Assembly (NCBI GenBank): GCA_902729315.2
Contig: LR746267.1
Location: 1,913,501-1,977,500, forward strand
Source of the DNA: Spirodela intermedia
Lineage: Eukaryota > Streptophyta > Magnoliopsida > Alismatales > Araceae
Direction of reading: 5' to 3'
Length of the DNA stretch: 64,000 nucleotides
Within the stretch, counting starts at the first letter, position 1. Every line of letters begins with the position of its first letter. The translations under genes were made by a program, and so were the position numbers. This document shows, one piece after another, positions 4,932 through 55,125 of this stretch. A model generated the notes under the pieces. It searched no databases, was not told where the DNA came from, and saw nothing but the letters and a program-made list of their open reading frames with translations.

Positions 4932-5257
4932 CTGGCTGGTAGGAGCAGGACCCTGACGACGGCGGCAACTGCCGTTATCCTCTCGCTCATTACGGCAGCC
5001 GCCGTTGGCCCAGCTTCAGCGAGCACACTGACAGCTTTCTCGGCACCCTGCTGCGACGGGAAAACCAAGGACATCAACGTCTGTGGCTGCGGCTGCTTCG
5101 GCAGCGGTCATCGCTAGGATCACCACTTCGTGTACACGAAGGATCAGGAGCCAGGCTATACACCGGGTACAACTGCCGCGGCTCATCCCGGCATCTTCAC
5201 AAGGAGGCCCGCCGTTGCGGCCCCAGCAGTTATAAGAGCATCTGCCTGTTCTGCTGA
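4932..5257 (+). pseudogene. MiAMP1-like peptide pseudogene 1
   Basis: The sequence aligns along its whole length with the intact gene at 7250: alanine-rich signal peptide, STLTAFS start of the mature peptide, CGCGCF block and a terminal SICLFC-TGA. Three lesions are visible. The start codon position reads CTG, a TAG at about 5115 interrupts the segment before the DHHFVYT block, and a small indel at about 5130-5165 shifts the frame before the YNCRGSS segment. The last cysteine and stop are still recognisable in the shifted frame. It belongs to the same subfamily as 7250 and is paired with the remnant at 48400 in the inverted duplication. Confidence 0.85.
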
Positions 5258-7149
5258 GCTCGATCCTCTTTGCCGAGATCCACGTAAAAAAAATGTTGGC
5301 CAACAAGGCAGCTGCTGGCAAACCCGTCTGCGTGAAGTCACATGAAATAAAAAACTTCGTTTTCCTTTTGTGTTGATCATATTCGCCTCCCTATTCATTT
5401 CGGCACTGTCCCACATCGTACTGAGGCCAACACGTCGCCGCAGATTCACGTTTAGTGTTGAAATTTGTATAGATGGGAATAAATATATCATCCACTTTCT
5501 GCAAGATACGAGAAGGTGCGGACAAGTCTCGAATACTCAGGTCGTCTGGACGTTACGGTAAACTGATACCATTGCAGGCAAGCTCCCACAAGTCCGAGGA
5601 AACCTTGGCCTGTCGAATCGGAAGGAAATTCCGATCACATCGCTCGGAGCGAAGTTCGTCAAAAGAAGACCGGAGAACATTTTTGTATCCTTACTCGCGG
5701 ACCAAATGGCCATCCCCGTGCGCTGATCCTGTTAAAGTTCAAGAAGCTGCATGGAGTTCTGTGAATATGTACCATTTGAGCCAATGATATGGTTTGATAT
5801 GTACACTTGTGAAATATGTTGAACAAACAGCTTCAAATAGATCATATATCAATTCCCTCTCTCTAAAAATATAGAAAAAAGGAGTCTGTGCACCAATATC
5901 TGCCATAAAAGGTCCAAGCCATAACAAATGAGAAGCTATACGACTTAGCTCTAGCATAATAACTCTGATATGCCATAAAGTATGTCGCTGATTAATGCCT
6001 TTTACAAGTAAACGGACGAAATTCCGGATTGTCTTTTAAAACATGCCGTCAAATAACTCGACGACGAAACGGACGAAGGCCTTGCTAGGCCATATGCTCA
6101 GAGTCGTGTGGTACTGTTCCACCTGTTTACCTTTGTCCGCTGAGGGCTATGCTTTGGAGAGCCGGTGCGTATATTTGTACGCGTTTTCTCACCTGCATCG
6201 CACAAAAACGAACGACTATTGAAACTACCTTCACGAATAAATCAGCATCCCAGAGTGTTTGTCAGTCGGTATAGAAATTTATAAGAAAATGAGAACTGTT
6301 GACTTCTTCCTAACCTCCTAACTTGTTCAAGGCACGTCACAATCGAAGTACGTCGAGATTTCCTTTCTAATCTCGTCAATGTTCTCATACGTGAAATAAC
6401 AGGTAGCTGCTTGCCACATACCCACCCTTTGATCTTGACACTAGGAGTAAAGACCTACGTCATACAATGCTATTGGCTGGGTTTTTCCCCCTGAAGACCG
6501 TCTACTGTTCTACATTATCCAGGAAGCACGACCAATTCAGCGGATACCATTGGCCTTTACGTCGGGAACTGAGGGAAAGTAAGCTTGGAGACGAAATGAA
6601 GAATATTCGATTATCAGAATATTATGGTCGACCTGCGTCCTACTAGAAAGTTATGCGATTTTCAGAAGGCTCTGATTTGGTTATTTTGACGTGGCGTGAA
6701 ACTAGATCGAACAGTTCATTTTAAGACGTTTGCCTTCATTTTGTATTCTCGATAAGATAAATGGTGAACTTGCGTGTAAATAGCCTTTTCAAAGAGTCCC
6801 ATATTCCCCCTTGTGAGGATAAACATGGGAAAGAATGACATATCAAAGTTGACCGGGCAGCTGAAGCCGACAAGGGGGCGACTAAATAGGAACCTTCACA
6901 AGGGAGGCTACCAACACGTAATTCTCGTCCGATCTCCCTAGGGCCAACTTTAACCACGCGAAAGCCAGCTGGTCGACGAATCGCCAAATAAGCCCGAGAG
7001 AGAACATTGGGCGAAACTAAAATAAAATATATAACTGATGACAGCATTTGACATTCGTGCTTCCTGACGACGCCATCAAAGAAGACTACGCACGCCTGGT
7101 CCGCCAGATTGTAGTTTTGTGATCCCAGCTGCCGTTTTTCTACCATCAT
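5258..7149. other. Spacer between peptide pseudogene 1 and the 7250 gene
   Basis: Much of this spacer is shared, inverted, with 47.2-48.4 kb. About 5560-6490 has no counterpart there and so looks like an insertion or a retained segment. It holds a spacer repeat (about 5690-5780) also seen inverted at 27.74-27.95 kb, followed directly by a chloroplast ndhH fragment. No intact gene is seen. Confidence 0.6.
5831..5972 (-). pseudogene. ndhH: Chloroplast ndhH fragment in nuclear DNA (NUPT)
   Basis: Read on the minus strand this stretch encodes an uninterrupted internal segment of NAD(P)H-quinone oxidoreductase subunit H, a plastid NDH complex protein: [20 protein letters not shown], then [18 protein letters not shown] and LIYDLFEA. 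Similarity stops abruptly at both ends within nuclear spacer, and no start, stop or neighbouring plastid gene is present. This is a short plastid-to-nucleus transfer of about 140 bp, not a functional gene. The lack of stops in the short frame suggests that it is not very old, though the length gives little power. Boundaries are good to within several bases. Confidence 0.88.
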
Positions 7150-7154
7150 CTTCC

Positions 7155-7160
7155 TATAAA
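7155..7160 (+). promoter_or_regulatory. TATA box of the 7250 peptide gene
   Basis: TATAAA in the context ttcctataaattgg lies 90-95 bp upstream of the ATG. The same box and following bases occur in front of the sister gene on the minus strand at 47225-47230, which supports a conserved core promoter. Confidence 0.75.
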
Positions 7161-7249
7161 TTGGACAGGGGGCGACGGCGAGGAGTTCACAACCCGAACT
7201 GCACCTACATACCTGAACCCTAAGATTCTCCATCGGTCCTTCCCACGCT

Positions 7250-7573
7250 ATGGCAACCACCGCCAGGACCCCGACAGCTGCAGCAGCTGCCGTTCTCATC
7301 GTGCTTTTCGCAGCAGCGGTCGTTGCGCCGGCATCTGCCAGCACGCTGACGGCCTTCTCAGGACCTGGGTGTGCCGGGAAAACTAAGGACGTCTACGGCT
7401 GCGGGTGCTTCCCGCTCACCGGCTACCAGGGAGGGTACCACTTCGTCTTCACAGAGAACCAGAGGGCAAGGCTTTACACCGGCTCCCACTGCGAAGGTTC
7501 CTCCATCCTCCTCAAAAAGGAGACCCGCTACTGCGCCCATTACGATTACGAGAGCATCCGCATGATATGCTGA
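7250..7573 (+). CDS. MiAMP1-family antimicrobial peptide precursor, intact
   Basis: Single-exon gene for a 107-residue secreted precursor. Residues 1-30 form an alanine-rich signal peptide with a hydrophobic core and an A-x-A cleavage site (PASA before STLTAF). The mature peptide of about 77 residues has six cysteines at mature positions 11, 21, 23, 51, 65 and 77. It carries the family landmarks SGPGC, CGC, GGYHFVFT, LYTGSHC and a terminal ESIRMIC. Family members fold as a Greek-key beta-barrel with three disulfides and inhibit fungi and some bacteria in the apoplast; that activity is known of the family and is inferred here. The gene has a TATA box and an AATAAA-type signal shortly after the stop (about 7600). 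The nearest paralogue is the minus-strand gene at 46815. Confidence 0.9.
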   Translation: MATTARTPTAAAAAVLIVLFAAAVVAPASASTLTAFSGPGCAGKTKDVYGCGCFPLTGYQGGYHFVFTENQRARLYTGSHCEGSSILLKKETRYCAHYDYESIRMIC

Positions 7574-8299: not shown

Positions 8300-8576
8300 A
8301 GCTCTTCACCGTTTCGTCTCCATTCCTTCCCCAGTACCGCGCCAACGGACTCCCCCCTCTCCTTCTGTGGACCCGAATGCGCCGGGTGAATTAAGGATGT
8401 AAAAGGCTGTGGGTGCTTCGATATCAGCGGGTATCAGGGAAGATACCACTTGGTGTTTACTGACGGCCTCGCCGTACATTGGCTCCTACTGCGATGGTTC
8501 CTCCGTCTCCCTCTAGAGAGTGACCGCCGATGCAAACGCAAAAACTTCAAGATCATCTATATGATCTGCTTGGCAA
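8300..8576 (+). pseudogene. MiAMP1-like peptide pseudogene 2
   Basis: The mature-peptide part of the subfamily I gene is recognisable: a CGPECAG-like start, an in-frame stop just after it, then KGCGCFDISGYQG, a block corresponding to YHLVFT, SYCDGSSV and a final IYMICL. The signal-peptide coding region is missing; the 5' leader runs almost directly into the mature part. The stop codon position reads TTG instead of TGA. A TATAAA at 8272 remains. Its flanking sequence (about 8.6-9.3 kb) is shared with that behind pseudogene 3, so the two arose by tandem duplication. Confidence 0.82.
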
Positions 8577-8599
8577 CCGTTTTTCCGAGTTCTGCAGAA

Positions 8600-10700: not shown

Positions 10701-10870
10701 AGGTTGATCATATAAACAATTAAGCTCCGCCGACGTGCTCAGTTACAAGACGCTACCTACTCAAGACTCACACAGTGACAAGTATAGTTCAATTCTACAG
10801 ACACTGTGTCGAGGGGGGAGAGTCCTGGGCTGTTACCTTAAAATGAAAGCTGTATGGATCATGTGTCGCA
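9780..10870 (+). repeat. Spacer repeat, three direct copies
   Basis: Three direct copies of a spacer unit are seen at about 9805-9920, 10205-10330 and 10735-10880. Each starts near gtgctct or gtgctca, followed by a motif like cgctacctactc, then catcac or ctcac, and later aaaatgaaagct or a close variant. Related inverted copies lie near 27.12, 27.43 and 27.99 kb and one at 46.48 kb, and a direct one near 7.88 kb. No coding role is seen. Confidence 0.7.
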
Positions 10871-10879
10871 GGAGGATAA

Positions 10880-11678: not shown

Positions 11679-11948
11679 ATGGCCGCTACCAGCAAGTTCG
11701 CGGCAGCTGCAATTCTCCTGCCTCTCGTCGCCGTTGCCGTCATTATGGCAGCGTCGGGCAGTACCCGGACGGGGTTCTCGGGCCCGAGGTGCTCCGGGAG
11801 GACCATGGACGTCAACGACTGTGGGTGCTTCGACATCAGCGGGTACCCGGGAGGGTACTACTTCGTGTTTACTGAGGGCTTTTACTGCGATGGCTCTTCC
11901 GTCTCCCGCTACAAGGAGACTTGCCGATGCAGACCCAACAGCTTCTAG
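11679..11948 (+). pseudogene. MiAMP1-like peptide gene 3, internally deleted and truncated
   Basis: An open frame of 89 residues starts with a good signal peptide (MAATSKFAAAAILLPLVAVA), followed by a subfamily I mature region: STRTGFSGPRC, DCGCF and GGYYFVFTEG. Compared with the 7250 protein, about nine residues are missing between the FTE and YC blocks. The block before the end has an extra cysteine (TCRC), and a TAG stop replaces the codon just before the terminal SI..IC motif, whose last cysteine codon is also changed to tyrosine further on. A secreted product could still be translated, but the disulfide that needs the last cysteine is lost. I treat it as a likely pseudogene. A start further upstream in the same frame is possible but would destroy the signal peptide. 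Confidence 0.75.
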
Positions 11949-13283: not shown

Positions 13284-13996
13284 TGTTTATTTCACTAAAA
13301 GTAATTCACCTAAGTATTTCCAAGCTATGGTAATGTCCGCTGTTTACTTTTACAAGTCATTAGTAAAGTGCAGAGTAAACTATAAAATTCAAGAGTTCGA
13401 GCCTTGTGATTTGAGAGTTTCGGATATTGTGTTGAAACAAATGTGTCACATGTGAGTAATACTTAAATAGAAGAATACCTGACAACGAAAGGATACCTAC
13501 GTCTATGCCAAAATAAAAACTTACACAATCCAAAAAAAAATTCAGGATATCTACTTAACATGTTGAAATAGACTAAGTAAAATCTCCAAGCAGTCTATCA
13601 TACAGTCCACTGGATTAAAGAAAATCCTGTGAAGGTCCTTTAAGTTCTCTAGTGAAATGATTAGCTACATAACTAACAGTCCTAGCTTTCGTATTAGTTT
13701 TCTCCTCCTAGAGAGCGATCGACAACATTGTAACATGAAGTCAGAAATTTTATAACTATGTCAAGCAAAGGTACATCCAAAATACATTATGTAAGAAAAA
13801 AATTAATAATCTTGTATAAGTACAAAGGCGTTAATTATAGCTTAAATATCCAGGATTTCATACACATTTTAGTTTCAAGTTGTGTGATAATAATTGCCTG
13901 AAAGGTAACAATGATGGTTGTCATTTGGACTAATGGCAGTTATAAAGGCAGTCACAATGTACGTTTTTTTATAGCAAGATAATGGTATTATTAATT

Positions 13997-13998
<2 letters not shown>

Positions 13999-14038
<40 letters not shown>
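13999..14038 (+). repeat. (GA)n microsatellite
   Basis: An uninterrupted run of GA dinucleotides of about 40 bases in an AT-rich setting. Confidence 0.95.
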
Positions 14039-14041
<3 letters not shown>

Positions 14042-16429
14042 TTCGATATATATAAAGATTATTCATACTAAGAAAAAGCAGATATTAACATTAAAGAATA
14101 AGTTAGCACTTAATAAGAGAGAAAACTTAATATTAAAGAATATGAGAACATTTAATAAGATATAAGATGTAATATTAAAGATTAAGAGAGAATTTCAAAA
14201 GAGACAGAATTTAGTATTAAATAAGATGAAAATTATTAATTTCAATTGCTTTGTTTTCGGATCTTTATAGGTTTGAGAAACAGGTTATTGTTCAATTAAG
14301 GTTTTTGCAAGATCAATTTAGCTTGGATCCAATATACCTTGAATATAAATACCAATAATGAAAACATTGACCTTAAATTCAGTCCCAAAAAATAAATCAA
14401 ATTAAACTTAATTTCAGGCCAATAATAAAAAGAACTTCAAATTAAATCAGGTCCAAGGATAAAATGAATTTCAAATTAAATTCTGGCCCATTAATGACTT
14501 CAATTACACTTCTTTTAAACTGAAATAAAAACCAAAACAAAATAAAAAAAATATTTCACACTATTATTCAATATGAAAGATTCAAACCGAGATGCCAATG
14601 TTACTATATCAGCTTAAAATGAAGCGAAAAAATTTATGACTTTCACGTTAATATATGTTTCAAATCAATAGTTACACAAATGGCTGAAGTACACACATTT
14701 TAGCTATTAAACAGTCCAACTCAGAGCCAATAACTCAACTCGCCAGTGTGCTCTGATGACTCTTCTAAATCTTTAAAAGAAGGAGATCCAATTCATATCA
14801 TTTGACTCTATAACAACAACCGTTAAGGCCATGGCTGGCTGGGTGTTAATTCCCAGTGAGCAGCATATCATGAATTGAAAATGAAAGGTGCAGGTTAGGA
14901 AAAATTCTGTCAACTATGTGAAGAAAAAAACTTTGAACACATTATCTTATGTGAGAGCACCCTGGCTCTACTCCCTCACACCAGGCAATTCTAGATCTTG
15001 GCTGAATAAATAGTCTTTGGACAACGATGACAACGATCAAAACTAGACTTGGTGAGATCCTACACGCATCTTGAAGATTAATTCAAATACACAGTATTGA
15101 ATTTTCTTGGCTCATTCACCCACATAATTATACATGGTTCACATGTCTCTGTATGCCATCTTTATCCCTTCTTGTAGCAACCGATAAAATAAATCAGCAT
15201 ATTTAAATAACCAGGAAATGTTAGATTAATAAGAAATACATGCGCACCAAATATTAATGTCACTACATCTAGTTTTCTTTTAGTTTAAATTATTAGTAAT
15301 CTAGAGATTGAATAAATAACTAAAAACAAGATTTATGCCGTTATGAATAAAATACTTAAAAATGAGGAAATATGAATGCTGTAAATGAGTATAGCCGATG
15401 AATTCAGTTAGTATCTAATCAGAATAAAATCTTCCATGACCACAAATAAGCTGCATAATTGCATGCTGGAATGCTCTTCACGGTGAGGCAAACACGTGAA
15501 GAAGTGAGCTCAGTGGTTTATTGGGTCAGGCAATGTTGACAAGAAAAGCCCACGGTGTCACCTCAACAACTTCCTGCTCTAGGCAGAAAGACATATACAA
15601 AAACTTGGAACATTGTAGAGAATTTAAGACGAAAGTAAAGTAAAATCTAGTGATATGCTAAGAAAGAAAAGAGTTCTGAATGACCTCATTCTTTTTAGGC
15701 TTAAAAATGGATGATAGGAAAGACTAGAAAATGATGGGATTTCCTGCCTGCTGGTTCAGCTAGCGTATAATCATCTGAATTCCAATACATTTGCTTATCA
15801 CGAAGGAAAGGAATCACTCGTAGTGCTAGGGCAGTTAACCATAGTGTTCGTTCACAAAAGGTTTTCCACAATTCATGAAAATTGAATATGATTCAACCAA
15901 TGGTACCAGTGACCATAAGTTGAGGGCAATCCTGATTTCAGATGACCAGTAGCCACCGAAATGACTCTAGACTAAGATTCAAGCAGGATTGCCAAGGCCA
16001 AATCAAATTATTGTTTCATCAATAACTCCTTGGAAACAATACCTTCCACGGTTCATGCCATTTTCTACTGGAGTGTCTCAATAACTGTGAGTTTCCTTCC
16101 TATAAACCAACAGATGGAAACAACATCACAAGGTGTACGCAAAAAATATCAGAAATTGCATGGTTACACAGACAATTGACAAAGATTAGGTTATGCGATA
16201 CCATGAAGGTTGTCCAGGCATTTACAGGTAACATCCCCTGGCAGATCTAAGCAGGCAATGCCCTTTCCTGTAAAAGCCACTGAAGTCGCTTGTACTCCAG
16301 TCCTCACAATCCAATAGAGGACTGAATGGAATCCTGGAAGACAGTCCGCTGGAGGGCACTAATCTCTTCTGAGTGTGCAAGTTCAACCAATTCCAACCTT
16401 TCTTCAAAATGGTAGATATGGACATTACC

Positions 16430-18038
16430 CATAATTAAAGCCTTTCTCAGACTTGAGATCTTGGAACAGAAATGAAAACGTCGACGAGCCCTCAGACTTG
16501 ATTCCTTGATTGGTGTGCCTGTACAGAAAGAAAGTATGCTTCAGGGAACTCTCCAGCCTGTGCCGCTGAAAACTACAAGCCTGAACACCGTCCCATTCAG
16601 TGGATCTCCCTTCCACACAGAAACCGTGAACAAAGTAACAGAAATGTGACAGCATCCATCGCACAGCCCTTGGACTGCATCTTATCCTGTGACAGCATCC
16701 ATTGCACAGCCCTTGGACTGCATCTTATCGCTCAGCTCTATTGCAGACCTGAGCATCCGATGCTGGCAAAGAAAAACTATGATGGCATTATAAGAAGCCG
16801 ACCTGGTATCCCAATCATCTGCAATCATGTTTCTGAACAAGTCCAATTGCAAGTAGCCCGCATACGGATGAGGCCAATCATCACCCGCTGCACGATGCCA
16901 GGAAATGGCATTGAGGGGGTAATGGAAGTGACGTCATTAGGAAGGTACCCGCCGAGCAACATATCCTTGAGGAAAACACAGCTTTTCAAGCTCGCCGGCT
17001 TTTGATGCATTGCCGATGAGGATACTGTGCGTGACGACATTCGGGACTAAACTTGCAGTACCCTTTGATCATTGCATTGCGGATGACGATGCCGTGGGGA
17101 ATGCTCTTCTTCCTCAAGAGGCAGAACGGTCTTCTGGTCACCGTTCCTGACGAAACCATCGAGGAGTGCGCCATAGATGAACTCATCGGGGAGGATGTTG
17201 AAGTTCAGCATCTCTACCAGCAGGTTCCTTGCAGCGGGGATCATCCCCTTCTAGGAAAGCCCGCCCATCACGCTATCGAAGATTGCCACGTCGGGCACCA
17301 CACCTCGCTCCTGATCGACAATCCTGCCTGGATCTCTCCTGATGCGATGAGCCCCCATGGATGAGGACGGTAAGGGCAACCCGGCCTCGAGGACGCCCCT
17401 TCTCCATCATTTCAACAGTAGGTTCCAGGTCGAGAGAACTCCCCCCAGAGACTGTATCTGTGCACTGAACCACAGATACAGAAAGCGTCGATAAGCATGT
17501 TGTGGGTCTCCACACCGGGCTCCATTCCCCGCCCCCTGATGTCCTGAGCAGAGCTCTGATCTCGGCAAAAGTCGGCCCTCTTAGAGAACCCTGCGATCAT
17601 CGTTCCATATGGAACCAAGGTGGACAGGAATCCTTGAATGTATCTTCCTGAACAGGTTGCAGGTTTTCTCGACGTCTTCCTTCCTGCAGCAGACATCCAT
17701 CAACTTGTTGTAGAAGACGGCATTTGGGACGCAACCAGTTCCCCACCTCCCCACCTCCCCTCATTCAGCTCCAGGGTTTCATCCGACCTCCCTTGCTGCG
17801 GCAAGACCTTCACCATTATACCAGTGGAAACGTTATCGGCCACGCCGTATCCCTGGAGCATTTCCTCAGACATCCTCCGGGCACTCTCGTAGCGGCGACG
17901 CAGCACAAGCAAGTTGAGGAGGCCCTTCCAGGCGTTAGTCAGCGCTTTCTCTTCCTCGCCGGTGTCAGAAAATCCGGCGACGATGGCGCGGAGAGCTTCG
18001 AGGTCGGAAAAACAGCGGGATTGGGCGAGGACTTCCAG
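16430..18038 (-). pseudogene. PPR protein pseudogene, copy A
   Basis: The minus strand encodes pieces of a P-class pentatricopeptide-repeat protein, a family that binds organelle RNA. N-terminal helices (LLVLRRRYESARRMSEEMLQ) lie at about 17830-17910, ETHNMLIDAFCICGSV at about 17470-17520, and FDSVMGG-type repeats at about 17260-17290. LLVEMLNFNILPDEFIYGAL lies at about 17170-17230, IRNAMIKGYCKF at about 17050-17090, and AIIVFLCQHRML near 16760. These pieces sit in different frames with several indels. A 42-bp-class tandem duplication (about 16646-16688 and 16688-16730) adds to the damage near the C-terminal end. The extreme N-terminus is absent because homology with copy C ends at 18038. Confidence 0.85.
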
Positions 18039-19300
18039 GCGTTAGCCTAATATATTACAATGTTGATTTTTGGAATTTTCATAGACCTAAGGTCTTTGTT
18101 CCTATTAACTATCTAAATCTTCTTTTAATAGTCATGAAGTGTGATTTTCTAGTTTGCTTTACACTCATCAATAATTAAAGTTCTCTCTTATCATCTAATG
18201 TTTATAACCAAGTACTTCCATTCCAAGAAATTGAAATATATTATGCTTTGTTTCGTCTTCATCAATATTTAACTTATATCTAATTAAAATTCCATTCACT
18301 ACATAGGATGTTTTTTTCATTACCTTAACCTAAATGTACTGGGTAGCTTATTTTCATGTAAAATTATTTTTACAATTTGCTGTAAATTTTTAGAAGTATG
18401 TAATAATTTATTCTTCTTTATCTCAACAATTTTATTTTGTTGAGCTGTTCTTGGAGCTTAAAAGTTAATATTCTCAAATTCTCTTCCCTGCTCATTCCTA
18501 ATCTTCTAGAGCATTGTTCCAAATTATTTTCAACTTTCCTTATAAATTTTAAGCAGTATTTTAATATTCAGTCTTAGCTATTAAGATGAAATAATCAAGA
18601 ATATTTAGAATAATCATCACTATAATTAAACCATTAAATTTTTCTCATAAGATGAAAATTTTATTTACATCAAGTAATCTAAATGAATCATGTGTAAAGA
18701 TTTAGTCGGAAAGATATGTTCTTTGGTGGTGATTGTTTATACTAGTTTGTTTTCCTTGCATCCAACTATAAAATTAAATTTGTCTATCTCTGTTAGTTTC
18801 GGTAGTCATTTGATTAAATGAATTTCTGATGCCAACAAAGGCTTTCTTTGTTATTTTATTCATTATAACTGTGTGATATATGTGTGGTCTGCCCATTTCT
18901 TTAAGATCTAAACTATGAATATTATTTACTCTAATCACTAGTAAAGAGTAAGTTACTATTTGAATCATTAAATAGTAATTTAATGTGATCATCACGAATG
19001 GACTTACATTATCAACAAGTAAAATATTTTTAACGAAGGTATGATCTTTGGAAGAAATATTTTCATGCTAAAATATATTTCCCTTTGTAATGCCTCCAAA
19101 TCTTATCTCTCTTCTGTCCATTTATTTGAATAAAGAAAGTTATCCTTAATTTTAACAAAAACACTCATCCTTGATCTCTATTATCCAAATACAACTACGA
19201 TGTAGTTTCACTATAGTTGTTTTTGAAAATATTATTTCAATTTTTATTTTAGGAACCAAAAATTATTTTTCATTTAACTATCTCCTTGAATACCAATACG
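18039..19300 (-). pseudogene. Decayed Ty1-copia integrase region
   Basis: On the minus strand, broken frames read like a copia gag-pre-integrase and integrase region. Around 18560-18700 there is a stretch like MIHLDLLDVNKIF, then GLIIVDDYSKYSWLF. Around 18460-18520 there is a stretch resembling EFEN, then an APRT-QQN-like box. Stops are frequent. Only the middle of the element is recognisable and no LTRs were found. Confidence 0.7.
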
Positions 19301-20617
19301 TGACTTATTTTGGTGTTAAATTCAATTGTAACATGTATTTTAGTTGATCTAAGGTTAAATTATAATCAGTTATTCCCTATGCAATATTTTTAACTTCTAA
19401 ATTACATATGTAATTTCTTCTCAACACCACATGATTTATTATAGAATGTAACTCATTATTGGATCAGATGAATACCTTCTAGATCTTTGGTCCTTGGCCA
19501 GTTCAATACTTTCTATTTTATTTCAAACAGTTTTACTTTATATTAGTGAACCATTAAACTGTTGAAGTTCATTGACCGTAGGTACAGAAGATTCTTCAAG
19601 AAATCTTTCTTGGTCTCTCTCAGTTTCTTTAACATTTTCAAGTTGTCTTGGATTTTCCTAAATTTTTCTGTAGACATGTATTTTGCCGCTCGTGTCTCAC
19701 ATAATCCTGTCGTTTCACGGAAGTTGCCGCTCGAGAATAATCAATGCCGAACTCTCTTCGATTCTCACCCGGGCCGGCCTTGATCGCCTTTGAAGGCGCC
19801 GAGCAGGCTCTTCACGCCGCGGAAGACTGTTCTTCGCCAATGGGTACTGCTATTCTCTCCCCTGGAAGGCCCCACTTCGCCTCTCCACGCTCGAATCCCG
19901 TCTTCATTTAGATGGGAGAGGCCTCCCAGCGCTTCCCCGTTTATCCGCCGATTCGTTGCTTGATCAGCAGGTCTTCAGCGTATCCGCTCAACCAACTGCT
20001 AGCGGTGCGGATCCACTCCACACGAAAGGAACAGAAGAGCTTGGGAGGGGGTCACAAACGAGCTCGGAAGGGTAAGTAACAGCCAGCTGCCTATCGTTTC
20101 GATGGCGTTGGCGATATTACAGAAGGAAATCCTGAGGTACGTCGAATATGTCATGATTTGAGCCAGTTAGAAAGTTATAATGAAGTTAATAATCCTTTAA
20201 TATGGGTGGTTGCACCGGCATCGACTGTTGCTGCTTATTTATTGCCCATAAGTTTCTGTACCATTTATCGCAGTTACGGACGTCAAAGATTTTCACTACT
20301 ATAAGAAACAGGAGACTAGGACGAAAATAGGTAACTGGAGACGGGGACACCACCGCCATAGTAACCTCAGAGTCGAATAGCACTACTAAAAAACTTGAAC
20401 GTACTCAAAATAGGAGGGCACAAGCAGATGTGGGGACTGGAAGGGAATAATGAACGACTTTCCACGAGCAGCGTGACAGACATTTCAATCCTTCCTTGGG
20501 CTCCGCATCTTCTGGGTGATGGGAACGGACGAAAAGGTCAGCGAGAAAATGATACAATGACCTGTTCGCCAAACGTTAAATGAGACTAACGAGTGCCCTA
20601 CTATTCACGTCTACCCC
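19301..20617. other. Spacer with a GC-rich island
   Basis: AT-rich until about 19680, then GC-rich to about 20140. The GC-rich part encodes short open stretches on both strands (for example a minus-strand GVKSLLGAFKGDQGRPG near 19790) that I cannot assign. From about 20150 it aligns with 54.24-54.7 kb, the upstream region of the 54805 peptide gene (shared blocks around tttaatatggg, cctgcttattta or ctgcttattta, and ttacggacgt). Confidence 0.5.
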
Positions 20618-20657
20618 TGATGGCGAAATCCGTCGACACTTTCAACGATTCGCGTAC

Positions 20658-20663
20658 TATAAA
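20658..20663 (+). promoter_or_regulatory. TATA box of the 20774 peptide gene
   Basis: TATAAA in the context actataaacagcacgg, about 111-116 bp before the ATG. The same context (actataaatagcacgg) is found before the 54805 gene, while the 25636 copy has lost the TATA core (acgagaaatagcacgg). Confidence 0.75.
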
Positions 20664-20773
20664 CAGCACGGATCAGGCACAGGGGACAGCAGCTCATCAT
20701 CCTCGACGAGCAACCCCTCCTGACGTGCCCCGATCCTCAGATTCTCGAGTCCGGCCGTGGCTCCGTGAAGGAT

Positions 20774-21097
20774 ATGGCGACCGCCAGGAAGAGCCCGGTC
20801 ACCGCGGCAGCTGCCGTTCTCCTGTTGCTTATCGTAGCCGCCGCCGTTGGCCCGGCGTCAGCCAGCACCCTAACGCTTTACGGCTTGCTCGGCTGCAGGC
20901 GACCCATACCTGGGCGATGTGGTGTGTGCTACAACATAGGCCCCCTCTACAAAGGCTACTTCTTCAACTACTTCGGGGGCCAGTGCGGCAGGTTCTACTA
21001 CGGGTTCAACTGCCAAGGCCGCTACGACGTCATCTGCCGGAGCATCCGCTGCTGCCAGACCCCCTGCCGATATAAAAGCGTTTTTATACCATGCTAG
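20774..21097 (+). CDS. MiAMP1-like peptide precursor with ten cysteines
   Basis: Single-exon gene, 107 residues. Residues 1-30 are a signal peptide (MATARKSPVTAAAAVLLLLI, then an AAAVGPASA cleavage region), and the mature peptide begins STLTLYG. It belongs to subfamily II, recognised by CGVCYN, KGYFFNY and the GRFYYGFNCQG block. Six cysteines match the family positions. Four more sit at GGQC and in the CRSIRCCQTPC region near the C-terminus, giving ten in all, compatible with five disulfides. It ends in YKSVFIPC like the family. The ATG at 20774 is chosen because it starts the signal peptide; an in-frame GTG three codons upstream is not needed. An antimicrobial role is inferred from the family. 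Confidence 0.87.
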   Translation: MATARKSPVTAAAAVLLLLIVAAAVGPASASTLTLYGLLGCRRPIPGRCGVCYNIGPLYKGYFFNYFGGQCGRFYYGFNCQGRYDVICRSIRCCQTPCRYKSVFIPC

Positions 21098-21530
21098 CCC
21101 TGAGGTGTCTACGGAACTGGCTTCCGGTTAGTGCTCTACTCGTGTACTAATGGGCCCCCATAAATAAATCCTATAAAATAAAGGAGCACGGCAGCCTTCT
21201 TTTGCTGAATAAACGTACTTTCTGTCCAAACGAAATCACTAGGTGTCAACGCGACATCCAAAGCTTTGGGATCGTCTTCGGTACAGGAAATCACTCTTTC
21301 TTCTTCGATTCTAAGGGGAATCCCGTCCAATCATTCTGTCCCATCTCAAACACACACGTAAAGAGATACAGATATTTGCCCAGGGTTTTCACGGCAGAAG
21401 ATACTTTTTCTATTTCCTTGACAGGGTTTTCTATTCGTTCCTGTTGGATTAACAAGTGGGGCAAGATCACCGTGAAAAAAGATAGACCCAATATTTAACC
21501 ATTATAGAAGCCCCAGGTTTATTGTGTTAT
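21098..21530. other. 3' flank of the 20774 gene
   Basis: Contains AATAAA-type polyadenylation signals around 21160-21180. Short open frames on both strands have no recognisable motif. Confidence 0.5.
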
Positions 21531-24470
21531 CGCATGTGAAGAATATTTAAACAAGACCACATACAAATTATGAGAGCAGGAGGATACCTACATCAATGCC
21601 CAAGTAAAAAGTTAAACGATGCAAACAAATATCGAAGGATATCTACTTAACGTATTGATGTAGACCAAGTAATATCTGTAGGCAATATAGCATACAGTCC
21701 ACTGAATGAAAGAAAACGTTATGAAGGACCATTCAGTTCTCTGGTGAAGCGATCAGCGTCTGTCACTAACCATGGTAGCTTTCATTTTACTTTCCTCGTA
21801 GAGAGTGATTGGCAACAGTGTAATATGAAGACAGAAATTTAATACTTAAATCAGCCAAAGGTACATTCAAAATACCATATTTCAGAAATAAATTAAAAAT
21901 CCTGAATATATACAAAGGCATTAACTATCGCATTAAATATTCGGGATTTTGTTCAAGTTTTAGTCAATAAGTCATGCAATAATAATGGTCTGGGACGAGT
22001 GGCAGTTGCAAACGAAGTCACAATGTCAACGTTTTTTTTCGTAGCTAGGGAGAGAGATACTATTAATTTAATAAGAAAGAGAGATATATGAAAATTAATA
22101 TAACGATAATCCGTATTGAGAAAGAAAGATATTCATACTAAAGGATAAGACAGCACTGAATAAGAGGGAAAATATAATATTAAAGAATACGAGATAAATA
22201 ATTTAGTAATAGAAAACAAGACAGCATTTAAATAGGCTATTGTTCAGTAATAACTTTGATGAGACCCATTTACCTTGGATCCAATACGCCTAAAAAATAA
22301 GGCCCAATAATCAAATAAGTTCACATTAAATTCAGGCCCGAAAATGAAATCCATTTAAACTTCAATACGGACCAATAATAAAATCTTTTTGAACTTCAAT
22401 CAGCCCAACAATAAAATCAATTTCAAATTTAATTCAGACCCAATAATTACATCAATTACATTTCTGTTAAACGGAAATAAACCAAGACAAAATACAAAAA
22501 TAATTCACACTATTATTCAATATGAAATATTCAAATCTTAATGCCTAAATTATTATATCATCTTAAAATTAAGTAGTGATAGATATTGATGATTTTCATA
22601 TTAATATACTTTTCAAATCAATACTTAAACTAAAGACTAAAGTACAACCAGTTTAGCTATTTAACTGCTGAACTAAGAGCCGGAAACGGAATTCTCCTCC
22701 GTGCTCTTATGACTCTTCTGAATCTTTAAAAATAGATCTAATTCATCTCCTTTGAATCCATTACAATAACGCTTGAGGCTATGGCTTGCCTGCTGTTGCC
22801 TCGTGAGTAGTATATCATGAACTGAAAATGAAAGGTACATGCTGGGAAAAATTCTGTCAACTCCATGAAGAGAAAAACTTTAAGCACGTTACCTTCTCTG
22901 AGAGCACCCCCGGCTCTCATCCTTCCTCACATCAGGTAATTCTGGATCTTCGCAGAAAAAATAATCTTCAGGTGATGATGCCAACAATCTAAAGTCCCAT
23001 CCTTCAAAGCAATATGACAGCACATCAATATTTATATCCGCAGATTTTAGGGGGCGGGAGATTTTGACATGAAGTCCGGTGAGGTCATACATGCATCATG
23101 AAGATTAAAGTAAAATACATTTATCGAATTTATCAGGTTCATTCGCCCACATAAATTATACATGGTTCACAGGTCGCTGTGGGCCATTGACGTCCCTCCT
23201 GTTGACAACTTCTAAAAAAAATCGGCACAATTAAATAACCTTCAAATACCTAATTAATAAGAAATACATGCACGCCAACGTACAAAAGTCATTGGATCTA
23301 GTATTCTTTTATTTTAGATAATTAGTTATTTATATAGATTGCAAAAAAAATTAAACGTAAGGTTTTATGGACATTATGACCAAAACTTTTAAAATGAGGA
23401 AAAATGAATGTTTTGCAAAAGTGGAGCGGATGAATTTAGTTAGAAGTTTAATCATAATAAAAAATTCTAGGGTTACAAATGTGTTACATAACTGCATGCT
23501 GGAACGCCCTTCACAGTGAGGCAAATGCGTGGAGGAGACAGCTCAGTTGCATATTCAAGCAAGAAATTCTGACAAGTAAAATGGCCAATGTGTCACCTCA
23601 ACATCCCCCTGCTCTAGCCTGAAACACAAATAGAGAAGCCCAGGAAATTTTAGAATGTATAAGATCCAAGTGAAGTATGTATTAGAGCATTTGCTGTAAG
23701 GCATAATCCTAGAGCCCAATCTGTTTTCAGGGTTTGGAGTGCTGGTCTTCAAGGACGTCAATCTTATGATATGCGGGGAAAGAAAAGAGTCCAAAATGAC
23801 TCTCTCTTTGGTTTTAGGGTTCAAAATGGAAGATACGAAAGACTATAAATGATGGGCTTCCTTGCCTGCAGTTTTAGCTGCCGCTTAATGATGTGTACTC
23901 TAGCACATTTTCTTATCAAGAAAGGAAAGGTATCACTCATAGAGCTATGGCAGTTAACCTAGGGTTCTATCAGAAAAGTTTTAAGTCAAATCAGGAGAAC
24001 AGAATACAAATCGACAGCTGCTACTTGATGAAGAGCAATCCTGATATGGATGAAGAGGCACTTTCCTACTACTTGATGGCAGCTGCTGAAAAGCTATCAA
24101 GTTAGATACAAGAGATCTTCCGTCAACAAGAATTGCCAAAGCTAAATTGAATCATTGTTCCATCAATAACTCCTTGGCAACAATATCTTCTATGGTTCAT
24201 GCCACTTTTTACCATAATGCCTCAATAACAGTGAGTTCCTTCTTATTAACCCACAGATGGAAATAAAATCACAAGGTGTACCCAAAAAGTGTCAGAAATT
24301 ACCTGGTTAGACATGCAATTGACAAAGATTAGGTTATGAGATACCACAAAGGATGTTCAAACACTTATAGGTAACATCGCCTAGCAGATCTAAGCATGCG
24401 ATATCAAAATGGGGAAATGCCCTGTCTTGTATGAGCCTTTGAACTCGACTTGTATTCCAGTCCTATATGA
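21530..24470. repeat. Segmental repeat, copy B (diverged, no PPR part)
   Basis: Aligns with about 13440-16300 in the same orientation. Shared anchors include ggatacctac, tagtccactg-like stretches, gcatgctggaa and aggtaacatc. Divergence and indels are much greater than between copies A and C, so it split earlier. It ends at about 24470, before the PPR pseudogene would begin. No gene is supported. Confidence 0.8.
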
Positions 24471-25635: not shown

Positions 25636-25938
25636 ATGGCTACCGCCAGTAAGATCCCAATCACCGAGGCAGCTGTCGTTCTCCTGTTGCATCTCGCAGC
25701 CACCGCCTTTCCCCCGCCGTCAACCACCGGCCTATATGTTAGCCAGGTGGCGAGCTGTATGAGACCCTTTTCTGGCAACTGTGGTGTGTGCTACAACTTT
25801 GGTGCCAACTACGTCAAAGGCTACCATTACATCTATAATGGAGGGCATCCAGGCAACTTCTACTACTTGTTGAACTGCCAAGATCCCCACGTCTGCGTCA
25901 AAGTGTGCCCCAAAAGATTTCTTCACTACTTAAACTAA
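25636..25938 (+). CDS. MiAMP1-like peptide precursor, C-terminally altered
   Basis: Open frame of 100 residues closely related to the 20774 gene, sharing upstream sequence from about 25464 on. The signal peptide is present (MATASKIPITEAAVVLLLHL) but its end is altered (FPPPSTTG instead of PASAS). CGVCYN, KGYHYIY and LLNCQ mark subfamily II. The C-terminus ends KRFLHYLN, so the terminal SI/SV..C segment and its cysteine are missing. The upstream copy of the promoter has lost its TATA box. It may be a young pseudogene or a peptide with changed disulfides. The frame is intact, so I list it as coding with that caveat. Confidence 0.6.
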   Translation: MATASKIPITEAAVVLLLHLAATAFPPPSTTGLYVSQVASCMRPFSGNCGVCYNFGANYVKGYHYIYNGGHPGNFYYLLNCQDPHVCVKVCPKRFLHYLN

Positions 25939-36500: not shown

Positions 36501-37906
36501 GCCTCATCGAGTTGGCCGACGCTGACGATGTTCGTCGTCAGTCGGGGAATGTAATACACCCCCGCGAAGGACCGATGCTCGCCGTTCTTGCACAGGAACA
36601 CGATTGCCCCCCGGCCTTCGATTCGCGCCACCGAGTCGTCGCCGAACCGCACCGTCCCAAGTACCTCCGTGTCCAGCTCGGTGAAAGCTGTACGGGAACC
36701 CGACATGTGGTTCGTGGCGCCCGTGTCCACGACCCACGCCTCCTCATCACGCAGCTCCTCCTCTTCAAGGTGGGCGAACACCTTCTCTTCCCGCAGGTGG
36801 ATCTGGGTCTGGGCGCCTGGCTTCCGCTCTTCTTTGGTGGCCCCTCCATTGACGGGGACCCCTTTTTCTCCCGGCGGCGGTGGGCTTGCACGCCGGAGCC
36901 GATCCTCTGCCTGCGGAGTCGCAGCAAAACGTGGTGGAGTGGAGGTTGGTGGCGGCGCCGTCGATCTGGCCGTTGTTGACTTCACGAGAAGGAGCGAGGC
37001 CTCCTCCTCATTCTGGACGATGTGGGCCTGTTCTTTCTTGGGCTTGGAGCGGCACTCGCGGGCCCAGTGGCCCAGCTTCCCGCATCTCCTGCACTCATCA
37101 CCTTTGGGCCGGCCTGAGTTGCCCGTCAGGCCGCCTGATGACGAGCCCTTTTCGCTGCCACGGCCGCGCCCGTGCCCGCGCCCATGTTTGACACGGTGCG
37201 TCACGCTGCTGCTACCTCCACCACCAGTTTTCTCATTATCGCGCTTCCTCCGCCGTGCATCCCACTCTTCCTCAGTCAGGTGCAGCTTGCCGTCGTGGTG
37301 CATAGCCGACGGTAGTTCCTCGAAGGCATCCTCCGCCGCCTTGAGCCGACCCGTCAAATCCGCGACAGTGAGCGTCGACACGTCGAGCAGCATCGTGATC
37401 GCGACCACGATCTGCCTGAAACGCTGGGGAACACTGCGGATTATCTTCTCCACTACCTGCGTCTCTTCGACCTTGTCGCCGAGGGTGTTGAGAGTCGACG
37501 CCATGCTGTTGAGACGCAGCGCGTAGTCCTCAACAGACTCTCCCTCCTTGAACGTCGCCGAGTCGAACTGCCGCCGCAAGTTCTGAGCCGACGTCTTCTT
37601 TACGCGGTCATCGCCGATCCGCATGGTGGCGATAGCCTCCCAGGCCTCCTTGGCCGTCTCCTTGTTCGCGATCACCGGCCACATTTCCGGCGGCACGGCG
37701 CTGCAGAGCGCGTCGAGCGCCTGCATGTCTTCGTAGGGTTCGACGCCCCCTTTCTCAATGGCGGTCCAGAGCAACCGGGCTCTGAGCTTGACCTTCATGA
37801 GCAGTGCCCAGTCGGAGTAGTTGGTCTTGGTGAGCATTGGGAACCCTGTCCCGGCGCTCACCTCACGAATCACCCTCTGGACCACTCCGTCCTTCCCTCC
37901 TGCCAT
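33485..37906 (-). CDS. Ty1-copia gag-pol polyprotein
   Basis: Single open frame of 1473 residues with all parts in copia order. The gag region is followed by a CCHC zinc knuckle (CRRCGKLGHWAREC, near residue 275) and an aspartic protease motif WVVDTGATNHMSG (near 390). Next come the HHCC integrase zinc finger (HVRLGH ... CEACLAGK, about 522-560) and integrase core acidic residues in HSDLCGP, TDRGGEF and NGIVERRN (about 592, 653, 687). Reverse transcriptase follows (LKWVYKVKRD to VYVDD, active site near 1131), then RNase H (FSDSDFAGD, SCEAEYIAA, from about 1298). The first ATG of the frame, at 37906, is chosen; a TTG further upstream is open but not a normal start. No stops or frameshifts are seen, so the element may be able to produce its proteins. 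Confidence 0.96.
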   Translation of the reverse strand: MAGGKDGVVQRVIREVSAGTGFPMLTKTNYSDWALLMKVKLRARLLWTAIEKGGVEPYEDMQALDALCSAVPPEMWPVIANKETAKEAWEAIATMRIGDDRVKKTSAQNLRRQFDSATFKEGESVEDYALRLNSMASTLNTLGDKVEETQVVEKIIRSVPQRFRQIVVAITMLLDVSTLTVADLTGRLKAAEDAFEELPSAMHHDGKLHLTEEEWDARRRKRDNEKTGGGGSSSVTHRVKHGRGHGRGRGSEKGSSSGGLTGNSGRPKGDECRRCGKLGHWARECRSKPKKEQAHIVQNEEEASLLLVKSTTARSTAPPPTSTPPRFAATPQAEDRLRRASPPPPGEKGVPVNGGATKEERKPGAQTQIHLREEKVFAHLEEEELRDEEAWVVDTGATNHMSGSRTAFTELDTEVLGTVRFGDDSVARIEGRGAIVFLCKNGEHRSFAGVYYIPRLTTNIVSVGQLDEAGYHIDIENGAMKIHEPGGRLLAKVMRGENRLYILHAKLVRQVCLEARAVEEAWKWHVRLGHVNMTALRKMAREELVRGLPAVGPVDQLCEACLAGKQKRSPFPQQGEYRARRVLELVHSDLCGPIAPETPNGSKYFLLLVDDRSRYMWVAMLPSKDRAAVAIKEIKARAEGESGLKLGALRTDRGGEFTSHEFAEYCAGEGIHHEHTAPYSPQQNGIVERRNGTVVATTRSMLKAKGLPGWFWGEAVATAVYILNRCPTKSVDGMTPFEVWHGKKPAVHHLKVFGCIAYVLNTTPHLKKLEDRGRKMIFIGYEYGSKAYRAYDPTARRVHVTRDVVFDENAQWDWGSGAKQGDAGSHDDMFTLEYAVGNQVPPELDGAIEVLDDDAPGPEPMSPPSVHYSGGAAPIEDGGEEVEFASPPSVHIDHLDANHDDAPLRFRKIDNIVGLASPRGLASRALIAKELHAVSSDEPVSFVEAEGHPSWRKAMEEEMASIEENRTWSLVDLPHGRRAIGLKWVYKVKRDENRAVAKYKVRLVVKGYAQRQGIDYDEVFAPVARLDTVRLLIALAAHEGWEVHHMDVKSAFLNGDLKEEVYVEQPAGFISTGNEHKVFKLKKALYGLHQAPRAWNAKLDETLLSFRFRRSPSEHAIYTRWNGEAQLVVGVYVDDLVIIGASCDDIKHFKKEMADAFKMSDLGLLRYYLGIEVRQSARGTLISQGAYAAKILERSGMAGCNPCQVAMATRLKLSKMSTEPLVDATAYRSIVGSLRYLVNTRPDLAFAVGYVSRFLEEPRKDHLAAVKQILRYVAGTKSWGLRYERKKEKQVQLTGFSDSDFAGDVDARKSTTGVIFFLANSPITWQSMKQKVVAQSSCEAEYIAAANAACQGVWLARVLAEVHGSAPSVPMLKVDNKSAIALIKNSVLHGHSKHIEVKYHLVRESAEKGQINVEFIRSEEQLGDVLTKPLGKVKFHEFRAKIGLVDVRGKYSKAQEEIVVNGSLARGFPIPLL

Positions 37907-37979
37907 AGCGCGTCTCGATTGCGCGTTCTCGATTCCAACGGCTGTACCTTGCCGCGATCGAGTCCCGGCCCGCAACCTG

Positions 37980-37995
37980 GGAGCTCTGATACCAC
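37980..37995 (-). other. Primer-binding site
   Basis: TGGTATCAGAGC on the minus strand, two bases inside the 5' LTR, is complementary to the 3' end of initiator tRNA-Met, the usual primer of plant copia elements. Confidence 0.92.
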
Positions 37996-37996
37996 T

Positions 37997-38305
37997 TGTC
38001 AGAAACTCGCCGGAGAGACGACGGCAGTTAAGACGTCGCCGGCGAGATCACCTCACGAGTCACAGGAAAAACAGCAGGAGGAACAAGGAAAACTTTCTCG
38101 CTGTTGAAAAACTCTTACAGCCCTCTTTAAATAAGAAAACAAAGGGGGAAAGGAATAACTGTAAGAAATAACTAGCTGGCCAAAACTGGCCAGTACCGTG
38201 CGTTATGCAGGAAATCCCGCATTACCAAATTCCGCATTACCAAATTCCGCATTACCTCACAATAGGGGAATGGGGAAGCCACGTGCAAGGCTCCCGTTCA
38301 CAACT
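37997..38305 (-). repeat. 5' LTR of the young copia element
   Basis: By eye, base-for-base the same as the 3' LTR except its outermost base: the minus strand begins AGTTGTGAAC instead of TGTTGTGAAC. Confidence 0.93.
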
Positions 38306-46814: not shown

Positions 46815-47135
46815 TCAGCAGATGCGGATGCTCATGAAATCGTAATGGCCGCAGAAGCGGGTCTCCTTGCTGAGGCCGAAGGAGGAACCGTCGCAGTGGG
46901 AGCCGGTGTAAAGCCTTGCCTTCTGGCCCTCGGTGAAGACGAAGTGGTACCCTTCCTGGTAACCAGTAAGGCGGAAGCACCCGCAGCCAGTGGCGTCCAT
47001 GGTTCTCCCAGCGCACCCAGGTCCAGAGAAGGCAGTCAGCGTGCTACCAGATGCCGGCGCAACGACCGCAGCTGCGATAAGCAAGGCAAGAACGGCAGCT
47101 GCCGCGGGTGTCGGGGTCCTGCCGATGGTTGCCAT
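46815..47135 (-). CDS. MiAMP1-family antimicrobial peptide precursor, intact
   Basis: Single-exon gene of 106 residues, sister of the gene at 7250. Signal peptide MATIGRTPTPAAAAVLALLI, cleavage near APASG, and a mature peptide starting STLTAFSGPGC. Six cysteines lie at the family positions: SGPGC, GCGCF, SHC, FC and the last residue. The C-terminus is SIRIC, one residue shorter than SIRMIC in the sister. The ATG at 47135 is chosen because it begins the signal peptide; upstream in-frame codons to 47210 lie between the TATA box and this ATG and are most likely leader. AATAAATAAA-like signals follow the stop near 46795. Confidence 0.9.
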   Translation of the reverse strand: MATIGRTPTPAAAAVLALLIAAAVVAPASGSTLTAFSGPGCAGRTMDATGCGCFRLTGYQEGYHFVFTEGQKARLYTGSHCDGSSFGLSKETRFCGHYDFMSIRIC

Positions 47136-54240: not shown

Positions 54241-54244
54241 TCTG

Positions 54245-54370
54245 ATATACTTAGAACCCAGTTAGAAGGTTAGGATGAAGTCCACAGCCATTTAATATGG
54301 GCTATTGCACGGATGATAAGCTTCGAAGGGTGGGATGAAGTCCATAGCCATTTAATTCGGGTGTGGTTCC
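54245..54370 (+). repeat. Short tandem repeat upstream of the 54805 gene
   Basis: Two direct copies of a unit of about 65-70 bp, with anchors ggatgaagtccacagccatt and then ggatgaagtccatagccatt. The surrounding sequence aligns with the upstream region of the 20774 gene. Confidence 0.75.
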
Positions 54371-54718
54371 TGCTTATTTATTCCCCATCGGTTTCCGTAC
54401 AACCTTACAGCAGGTACGGACGTGAATATTTAGTATAGTAGGCTTCTTCTTACCAATAGAAAGAAACGAGACAAGAAGCCGGAGTAGACAGCTGAAGAGG
54501 AGTAAACCGGCTAATAATGAACTTCTTTGATTGAGCGGCGCGCCAGAATGAGACCCTAGAAGGTAACACGTTGCGCAAGTGGGTGCGAGAACTAGAAGAA
54601 GGTAGTAATGAGAGACTTTCAATGGAGCGGCGCGTGCCAAGCTTTTCAAACCGCCCTCGTCGGCTTTGAATCTTCTGAATGAGATCGAAGCAAAAGGGTT
54701 GATTTCTACCCGACTTAC

Positions 54719-54726
54719 TATAAATA
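54719..54726 (+). promoter_or_regulatory. TATA box of the 54805 peptide gene
   Basis: TATAAATA followed by gcacgg, 79-86 bp upstream of the ATG; the same context precedes the 20774 gene. Confidence 0.78.
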
Positions 54727-54804
54727 GCACGGGTTGGGGGAGCTGGAGAGCAGCAGCTCAACACAGCTTTCTTCTCAATCCCCAGATTCTTCCCGAGTCC
54801 TGCC

Positions 54805-55125
54805 ATGGCCTACAACACGACCCCGGTTGCGGCGGCAGCTACCCTTCTCCTGTTGCTCATCGCAGCCGCCGCCGTCGCACCGGCGTCAGCCAGCACGGTA
54901 ACGGCGTACTCGCGGAGGGGCTGCACTGGGAAGAAGATAACTTGGCGATGCGGTGCGTGCTACTCGTTCACTGGCTACAAGGCGGGCTACTTCTTCGACT
55001 ACTCGCAGGGCCAAATCGGCAGGTTCTATATCGGCGCGCGCTGCCGCGGCCTCTACTTTCCCATCTTCTTCGACATCCGCGTTTGCTCCCCCCACATATT
55101 TAACAGCATCCGCATAGTATGCTGA
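54805..55125 (+). CDS. MiAMP1-family antimicrobial peptide precursor, subfamily II
   Basis: Single-exon gene of 106 residues. Signal peptide of about 30 residues (MAYNTTPVAAAATLLLLLIA, cleavage after PASA), then a mature peptide STVTAYSRRGC with six cysteines. Landmarks are RCGACYSFTGY, AGYFFDY, GRFYIGARC and a terminal NSIRIVC. The mature part is rich in arginine and lysine and low in acidic residues, so it should be strongly cationic, as suits a membrane-active antimicrobial peptide (inference from the family). It is the cleanest member of subfamily II: the related 20774 gene has added cysteines and the 25636 gene has lost its terminus. No lesion is seen. Confidence 0.9.
   Translation: MAYNTTPVAAAATLLLLLIAAAAVAPASASTVTAYSRRGCTGKKITWRCGACYSFTGYKAGYFFDYSQGQIGRFYIGARCRGLYFPIFFDIRVCSPHIFNSIRIVC

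What the first reader, a model, noticed from the sequence alone, without database searches (positions are those of the whole stretch)
4932..55125. Nine-member MiAMP1-like peptide cluster in two subfamilies under birth-and-death change
Nine copies of a small secreted cysteine-rich gene lie within 50 kb: four intact, one altered, four dead. Subfamily I (pseudogenes 1-4 and the genes at 7250 and 46815) and subfamily II (20774, 25636, 54805) differ in the mature peptide (SGPGC..GCGCF against RCG.CY and GRFY) and have separate promoter sequences. MiAMP1-type peptides are usually described as single or few genes, so a cluster with active gain and loss is notable. Family assignment rests on the signal peptide, the six-cysteine layout and motif order.
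Basis: partly seen in the sequence, partly recalled or inferred. Interest (0 to 1): 0.75.

Follow-up and report, generated by a model that had tools for sequence, protein, structure and literature searches.

The report
Edge of duckweed antimicrobial-peptide gene array
This stretch of duckweed DNA is one end of a very large array of antimicrobial-peptide genes of the macadamia MiAMP1 type; one branch of the family is kept nearly constant while the other changes fast at some positions, as if in a race with microbes, although the expansion itself was already known in duckweeds.

Summary

What the tools added:
(1) The subfamilies evolve oppositely. Subfamily I mature peptides are under purifying selection (omega 0.13, no positive class). 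Subfamily II has about 20% of sites at omega about 5 (M1a/M2a 2dlnL 46.6; 0 of 200 null simulations reach it).
(2) One subfamily II branch gained cysteines, 6 to 8 to 10. The 10-Cys gene is 20774.
(3) 20774 has an identical copy 96.6 kb away, inside a 2,605-bp identical core of a duplicated segment whose outer parts differ by 3-5%. This looks like gene conversion; an assembly artefact is not excluded.

Function is inferred, not shown.

The parts
4932..5254 (+). Subfamily I pseudogene 1, frameshifted (two frames)
   Evidence: 4932-5150 frame 3 and 5138-5254 frame 2, E 4.6e-22
7250..7573 (+). Intact subfamily I gene, 107 aa, 6 Cys
   Evidence: Pfam MiAMP1 56.3 bits against cut-off 26; model matches 1C01, TM 0.89 by target, rmsd 1.4; PDB sequence match E 2.3e-6
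8330..8569 (+). Subfamily I pseudogene 2, remnant of the mature part
   Evidence: E 8.7e-14
11679..11948 (+). Subfamily I pseudogene 3: internal loss and early stop, 89 codons left open
   Evidence: E 3e-23; Pfam 22.7 bits, below the cut-off
13360..24464 (+). Segment duplicated at C4:1830129-1841433; 3-5% different in its outer parts, less inside
18952..21556 (+). 2,605-bp perfectly identical core of that duplication, holding gene 20774 with about 1.8 kb upstream: candidate gene-conversion tract
20774..21097 (+). Intact subfamily II gene, 107 aa, 10 Cys; identical copy at C4:1837664-1837987
25636..25938 (+). Altered subfamily II copy: signal region changed and C-terminal part off the family pattern; a relative with the same changed signal region lies at C4:1859806
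   Evidence: no Pfam match
46815..47135 (-). Intact subfamily I gene, 106 aa, 6 Cys
   Evidence: Pfam 55.9 bits; a named S. intermedia protein on another, 9,279,413-base contig differs at 1 of 106 residues
48409..48504 (-). Subfamily I pseudogene 4, short remnant (C-terminal third)
   Evidence: E 6.5e-4; flanking DNA 48128-48535 matches 5122-5531 at 70%
54805..55125 (+). Intact subfamily II gene, 106 aa, 6 Cys
   Evidence: Pfam 31.1 bits against cut-off 26; identical over 96 residues to a named S. intermedia protein on the 9,279,413-base contig

Best explanation
The window is one end of a large, still-moving tandem and segmental array of MiAMP1-type genes in the duckweed Spirodela intermedia. 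Each intact copy encodes a hydrophobic N-terminus that looks like a signal peptide and a mature peptide of about 77 residues with the MiAMP1 beta-barrel (by homology and prediction). It is inferred to be secreted and to inhibit microbes, as macadamia MiAMP1 does. Copies arise by segmental duplication, decay by frameshifts, deletions and stops, and are in places made alike again, probably by gene conversion (inferred from the identical core). The two subfamilies evolve differently: subfamily I is kept constant (purifying selection), which suits a dosage role (inferred); subfamily II changes fast at about a fifth of its sites while keeping its cysteine frame, which suits an arms race with microbial targets (inferred). 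One subfamily II branch gained cysteines, with 6, 8 and 10 in different members, probably adding disulfide bonds (inferred).
For: Membership: Pfam, PDB sequence match, models and fold matches. Array: 86, 96 and 89 matches in three searches of the own genome, merged with two remnants to 109 copies, 81 of them on C4. Duplication: 21,169 bp at 99.8% in an 18.2-kb register within C4:1.38-1.58 Mb; the 11-kb duplication holding 20774. Selection: II mature M0 omega 0.56 (rejects 1, 2dlnL 11.1), M1a/M2a 2dlnL 46.6 with 20% of sites at omega 5.4; I mature omega 0.127, M2a adds nothing. II stands in gap-free columns (47.0), with each of 8 sequences left out in turn (27.8-45.8), with separate trees for each half (27.3 and 10.1), with a tree from the signal region (55.8) and without residues 42-50 (31.9); 0 of 200 simulations under M1a reached 46.6, maximum 12.4. 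Cysteines on one branch: 6, 6, 8 and 10. Duckweed MiAMP1 genes were upregulated after Pseudomonas treatment (PMC9828482, passages).
Against: No expression or activity data were found for these copies. The same paper says that MiAMP1 orthogroups did not meet its criteria for conserved upregulation. Genes of an array may recombine, which inflates M2a; half-by-half trees only partly control for this, and the second half alone is much weaker (10.1). The mature omega of II is below 1 on average, and pairwise counts (1.06) and likelihood (0.56) disagree on its size. The signal region of II is 0.55 by pairwise counts but 1.02 by likelihood on 30 codons, so it is not clearly more constrained than the mature part. 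The likelihood code is my own script, not a published package, and the site posteriors are naive (NEB).
Confidence: 0.8

Rival explanations
1. Subfamily II is not diversifying under selection but decaying: a duplicated side branch free of constraint.
For: Many II copies are broken or altered (C4:1597596, 1808992, 1828462, 1854082, 1859806 and window 25636); pairwise mature dN/dS is about 1.
Against: M0 rejects omega 1 (2dlnL 11.1); 31% of sites are at omega 0.07; none of the ten cysteine columns of 20774 has a posterior above 0.33 for the fast class; M2a beats a model that already contains a neutral class by 46.6, and 0 of 200 simulations of that model reach it.
Confidence: 0.12
2. The identical core around 20774, and some of the near-identical array copies, are artefacts of the assembly rather than gene conversion and recent duplication.
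For: The paper's clone 8410 assembly was made with MaSuRCA from Illumina super-reads plus nanopore reads (PMC7645714, passages), a method that could put one sequence into two similar places (my inference); the assembly length fits this genome (136.6 Mbp against 136,496,439 bases).
Against: The identity is stepped, not all-or-none: about 3-5% different outside, about 0.8% nearer, 0 over 2,605 bp, so neighbouring differences were resolved. A close relative with the same C-terminal cysteine pattern is annotated on another S. intermedia contig of 9,279,413 bases (P0025); that supports the gene, not the identity of its two copies.
Confidence: 0.35
3. These barrels are not antimicrobial but serve another role of the crystallin-like fold, such as stress protection, metal or sugar binding.
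Confidence: 0.12

Closest known systems
MiAMP1 of Macadamia integrifolia (PDB 1C01, Pfam PF09117)
   Different: Only about a third identical; part of an array of dozens; subfamily II mostly has C-G-x-C in place of C-G-C, and 20774 has ten cysteines. The genome also holds a closer MiAMP1 relative on C5 (110 bits).
Expanded MiAMP1 families of Lemnaceae (S. polyrhiza, Landoltia punctata, Wolffia australiana; PMC9828482)
   Same: High copy number, lineage-specific expansion, rapid birth and death; upregulated after pathogen treatment in S. polyrhiza and Landoltia
   Different: In the section and passages I read, that paper gives no selection test, no I/II contrast and no cysteine gain, and its MiAMP1 analysis is not on S. 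intermedia. Its supplements were not read.
S. polyrhiza tandem-duplicated antimicrobial peptide genes (An et al. 2019, seen only as cited in PMC9828482 and PMC13087006)
   Same: Tandem expansion of antimicrobial peptide genes in the sister species
   Different: The paper itself is not held, so the overlap in detail is unknown.
Beta-gamma crystallins and the Williopsis killer toxin WmKT (1WKT)
   Same: Same broad fold class (crystallins)
   Different: Lower sequence identity (about 7-20% in the listed rows) and weaker structural match than MiAMP1.

Membership tests
MiAMP1 (PF09117) | Match to the profile above the curated cut-off (26 bits) | tested here: met
   7250 56.3, 46815 55.9, 54805 31.1 bits
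MiAMP1 (PF09117) | Profile match for the most diverged copies 20774 and 25636 | tested here: not met
   no family at E 0.001. They join the family by similarity to other members and, for 20774, by tree (as its identical twin C4:1837664) and fold.
MiAMP1 (PF09117) | Beta-barrel fold of 1C01 | tested here: met
MiAMP1 (PF09117) | N-terminal signal peptide | tested here: inconclusive
   Hydrophobic N-terminus ending in an A-S-A-S-like motif in the alignment; no signal-peptide program was available
MiAMP1 (PF09117) | Six cysteines forming three disulfides | tested here: inconclusive
   6 mature cysteines in 7250, 46815 and 54805 and 10 in 20774; the bonds themselves are not testable here
MiAMP1 (PF09117) | Growth inhibition of fungi and Gram-positive bacteria | not testable with these tools
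   Needs purified peptide
Birth-and-death gene family | Coexisting intact and dead members, lineage-specific clades, recent duplicates | tested here: met

The most novel reading that the evidence does not exclude
Within one array the plant runs two programmes side by side: a constant, purified subfamily I and a diversifying subfamily II. In II, new disulfide-bearing variants (8 and 10 cysteines) are invented, and the 10-Cys one is spread and protected by gene conversion of the whole gene with its promoter. This would be an effector-like arms race carried by an antimicrobial peptide in a plant lineage that has lost EDS1 immunity.
Probability: 0.3. Interest if true: 0.7.

Novelty: new variant of a known kind. 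Interest (0 to 1): 0.42.

Why it matters
Duckweeds lack the EDS1 immune hub and have reduced NLR numbers (PMC9828482), yet mount a response to microbes. If subfamily II is shaped by an arms race, its fast sites point to the faces of the peptide that meet the microbe, and it becomes testable whether antimicrobial peptides have taken over part of the burden that receptors carry in other plants. The array also lets duplication, decay and possible gene conversion of a defence gene be compared between two sequenced clones of one species.

Tried and rejected
Chance similarity of the nine copies: rejected. 'Single or few genes' as the reason for interest: rejected for duckweeds. Relaxed constraint as the whole explanation of II: disfavoured. 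Indel misalignment as the source of the signal: weakened. Glycosyltransferase-like match of 46815 (19.7 bits, below its cut-off of 25): treated as chance. tRNA genes: none. Crystallin or WmKT membership: only weaker fold matches; WmKT appears (rank 21) and not among the rows shown. Literature searches behind any statement about print. One search found no paper; the two papers were seen as listings only. Supplementary files were not read.

What went into the counts: the subfamily I selection set was 12 chosen sequences; the diverged I-side rows (C11, C7:6.9 Mb, C4:1397184, C4:1511230 and their near-copies, C4:1806736) and near-duplicates were left out. The II set was 8 distinct intact sequences; near-copies C4:1492192 and C4:1689839 and the broken copies were left out. 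The tree used 48 distinct coding sequences out of 57 full-length records among 86 records found in the DNA that read. One gene was read twice (L003, L029). The coordinates that one search prints for L003, L004 and L008 (labels C4_1592304, C4_1660142, C4_1801344) and L005 are mirrored within the locus. L002 (C10) gave no record at its threshold, though Pfam matched it. The 200-kb stretch L009-L028 holds 5,000 N in all.
Full report
WHERE THE WINDOW LIES. The window is C4:1913501-1977500 of a 136,496,439-base genome in 32 contigs. C4 is 10,031,792 bases long, the length of the contig that bears several proteins named Spirodela intermedia. The published assemblies of that species are 147.6 Mbp (clone 7747) and 136.6 Mbp (clone 8410) (PMC7645714, passages), so the window is most likely from clone 8410. 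Proteins on other contigs such as the 9,279,413-base one are then probably from clone 7747; both are inferences from lengths.

THE OBSERVATION. All nine copies are present: intact frames at 7250, 20774, 46815 and 54805; an altered copy at 25636; broken copies at 4932, 8330, 11679 and 48504. The last is a short remnant (E 6.5e-4), supported by a 70% DNA match of its neighbourhood to that of the copy at 4932. Pfam MiAMP1 is matched by 7250 (56.3 bits), 46815 (55.9) and 54805 (31.1), weakly by 11679 (22.7, below the cut-off of 26), and not by 20774 or 25636. 7250 also matches the solved MiAMP1 chain 1C01 by sequence (E 2.3e-6).

THE ARRAY. A Pfam search of the own genome gives 86 matches, the 54805 protein 96 and the 20774 protein 89. 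Merged, with two remnants, they make 109 copies: C4 81, C11 10, C7 7, C3 6, C10 2, C17 2, C5 1; the C4 copies span 1394529-1968622, nine of them in the window. These are lower bounds, include dead copies, and depend on the assembly. Within C4:1.38-1.58 Mb large segments repeat: 21,169 bp at 99.8% in an 18.2-kb register, 11.5 kb inverted at 96%, and others. The window is the more diverged end: a megablast of it against that stretch gave no piece longer than 600 bp at 85% or more.

TWO SUBFAMILIES. In the tree of 48 distinct sequences the 10 subfamily II rows form one branch (98/95) and the 32-row I side, with C7 and C11 members, another (91/90). Upstream DNA shows no I-to-II match among 17 stretches, but each subfamily has more than one promoter type.

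OPPOSITE SELECTION. I wrote a codon-model likelihood (GY-type, F3x4; M0, M1a, M2a) in Python. Subfamily I, 12 sequences, mature part: omega 0.127, M2a adds nothing. Subfamily II, 8 sequences: M0 omega 0.56, M1a/M2a 2dlnL 46.6, classes 31% at 0.07, 49% at 1, 20% at 5.4. Sites with a naive posterior of 0.95 or more, in 20774 numbering, are L35, L38, L39, I45, P46, R48, R99 and P106. Against the strands of the model, L39, R48, R99 and P106 lie outside strands, L38 and P46 are the last residues of strands, and L35 and I45 lie within them. Of the ten cysteine columns of 20774 the highest posterior is 0.33. The result stands in gap-free columns (47.0), after leaving out each sequence in turn (27.8 to 45.8), with separate trees for the two halves (27.3 and 10.1), with a tree from the signal region (55.8), and without residues 42-50 (31.9); the two halves of subfamily I give 0. 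Of 200 simulations under M1a none reached the observed value (maximum 12.4, 95th percentile 5.5). Results against: pairwise counting gives a higher average (1.06) than likelihood (0.56); the II signal region is 0.55 by one and 1.02 by the other; the four window-type I genes taken alone are less constrained by pairwise counts (mature 0.57); and recombination is only partly controlled.

CYSTEINE GAIN. Most full-length members have six mature cysteines. C4:1883923 has eight, and 20774 with its twin C4:1837664 has ten; these two sequences are sisters in the tree (98/89). C4:1880434 carries the C-C..T-P-C motif too but stops short. P0025, a protein on the 9,279,413-base contig, carries the same C-terminal cysteine pattern as 20774, although its annotated middle part departs from the family. 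Gain in steps of two suggests added disulfides; this is inference. 20774 itself is in the protein collection as P0023, but the tool hides source and name for proteins that the window encodes, so whether it is annotated cannot be told.

AN IDENTICAL CORE. The segment 13360-24464 is duplicated at C4:1830129-1841433. Differences are dense outside (98 mismatches over 13360-16729; 72 over 22230-24464, most of them beyond 23002), sparse between (24 in the 5,588 bp of 16645-22232) and absent for 2,605 bp, 18952-21556, around gene 20774. The 24 differences lie in the other 2,983 bp of that stretch, 0.8%; at that rate about 21 would be expected in the core (my arithmetic). Coding constraint on this gene cannot explain it, because the gene takes only 324 of the 2,605 bp. 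Gene conversion after an older duplication is the simplest biological reading; homogenisation during the MaSuRCA assembly is the main rival.

PRIOR ART. PMC9828482 (section 14 read in full; [quoted passage not shown] polyrhiza and Landoltia, although the orthogroups did not meet its criteria for conserved upregulation. It says that selection 'may be favoring their diversification'. PMC13087006 (one passage) and PMC9828482 cite An et al. 2019 for antimicrobial-peptide expansion in S. polyrhiza; that paper is not held. In the library the term MiAMP1 occurs in 19 papers, and together with Spirodela in one. I found no selection test in print with those searches; papers outside the library, and supplements, were not searched.

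VERDICT. The new part is the measured contrast between a constant and a diversifying subfamily, the cysteine gain and the identical core. That makes it a new variant of a known kind, of moderate interest.

Noticed in passing
window 33225-38304: Young Ty1/copia element: intact 1473-aa frame on the minus strand (33485-37906) with gag, integrase and reverse transcriptase domains, and two 308-bp terminal repeats that are 100% identical, flanked by an apparent 5-base direct repeat. It sits inside the peptide array.
   Followed up: partly
window 15230-18038 and 30384-33185: A 2.8-kb segment with PPR-repeat gene fragments is duplicated at 98% identity within the window, and again near C4:1.832-1.835 Mb.
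   Followed up: partly
L009-L028 (C4:1380001-1580000): Near-identical 18.2-kb units (99.8%) carry several peptide genes each. One family copy with an in-frame TGA occurs five times on C4 (two of them in this stretch): a dead gene is multiplied along with live ones.
   Followed up: partly
C4:1423315, 1436507, 1458505, 1468855: Four identical coding sequences of a subfamily II gene, on both strands, within 46 kb.
   Followed up: no
L001 (C5:6140156-6140467): A gene with a much better MiAMP1 profile score (110 bits) than any array member, perhaps the conserved ancestral type.
   Followed up: no
C4:1859806 and window 25636: Two altered subfamily II copies share the same changed signal region, so the change probably came before their duplication; whether they are secreted is doubtful.
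   Followed up: no
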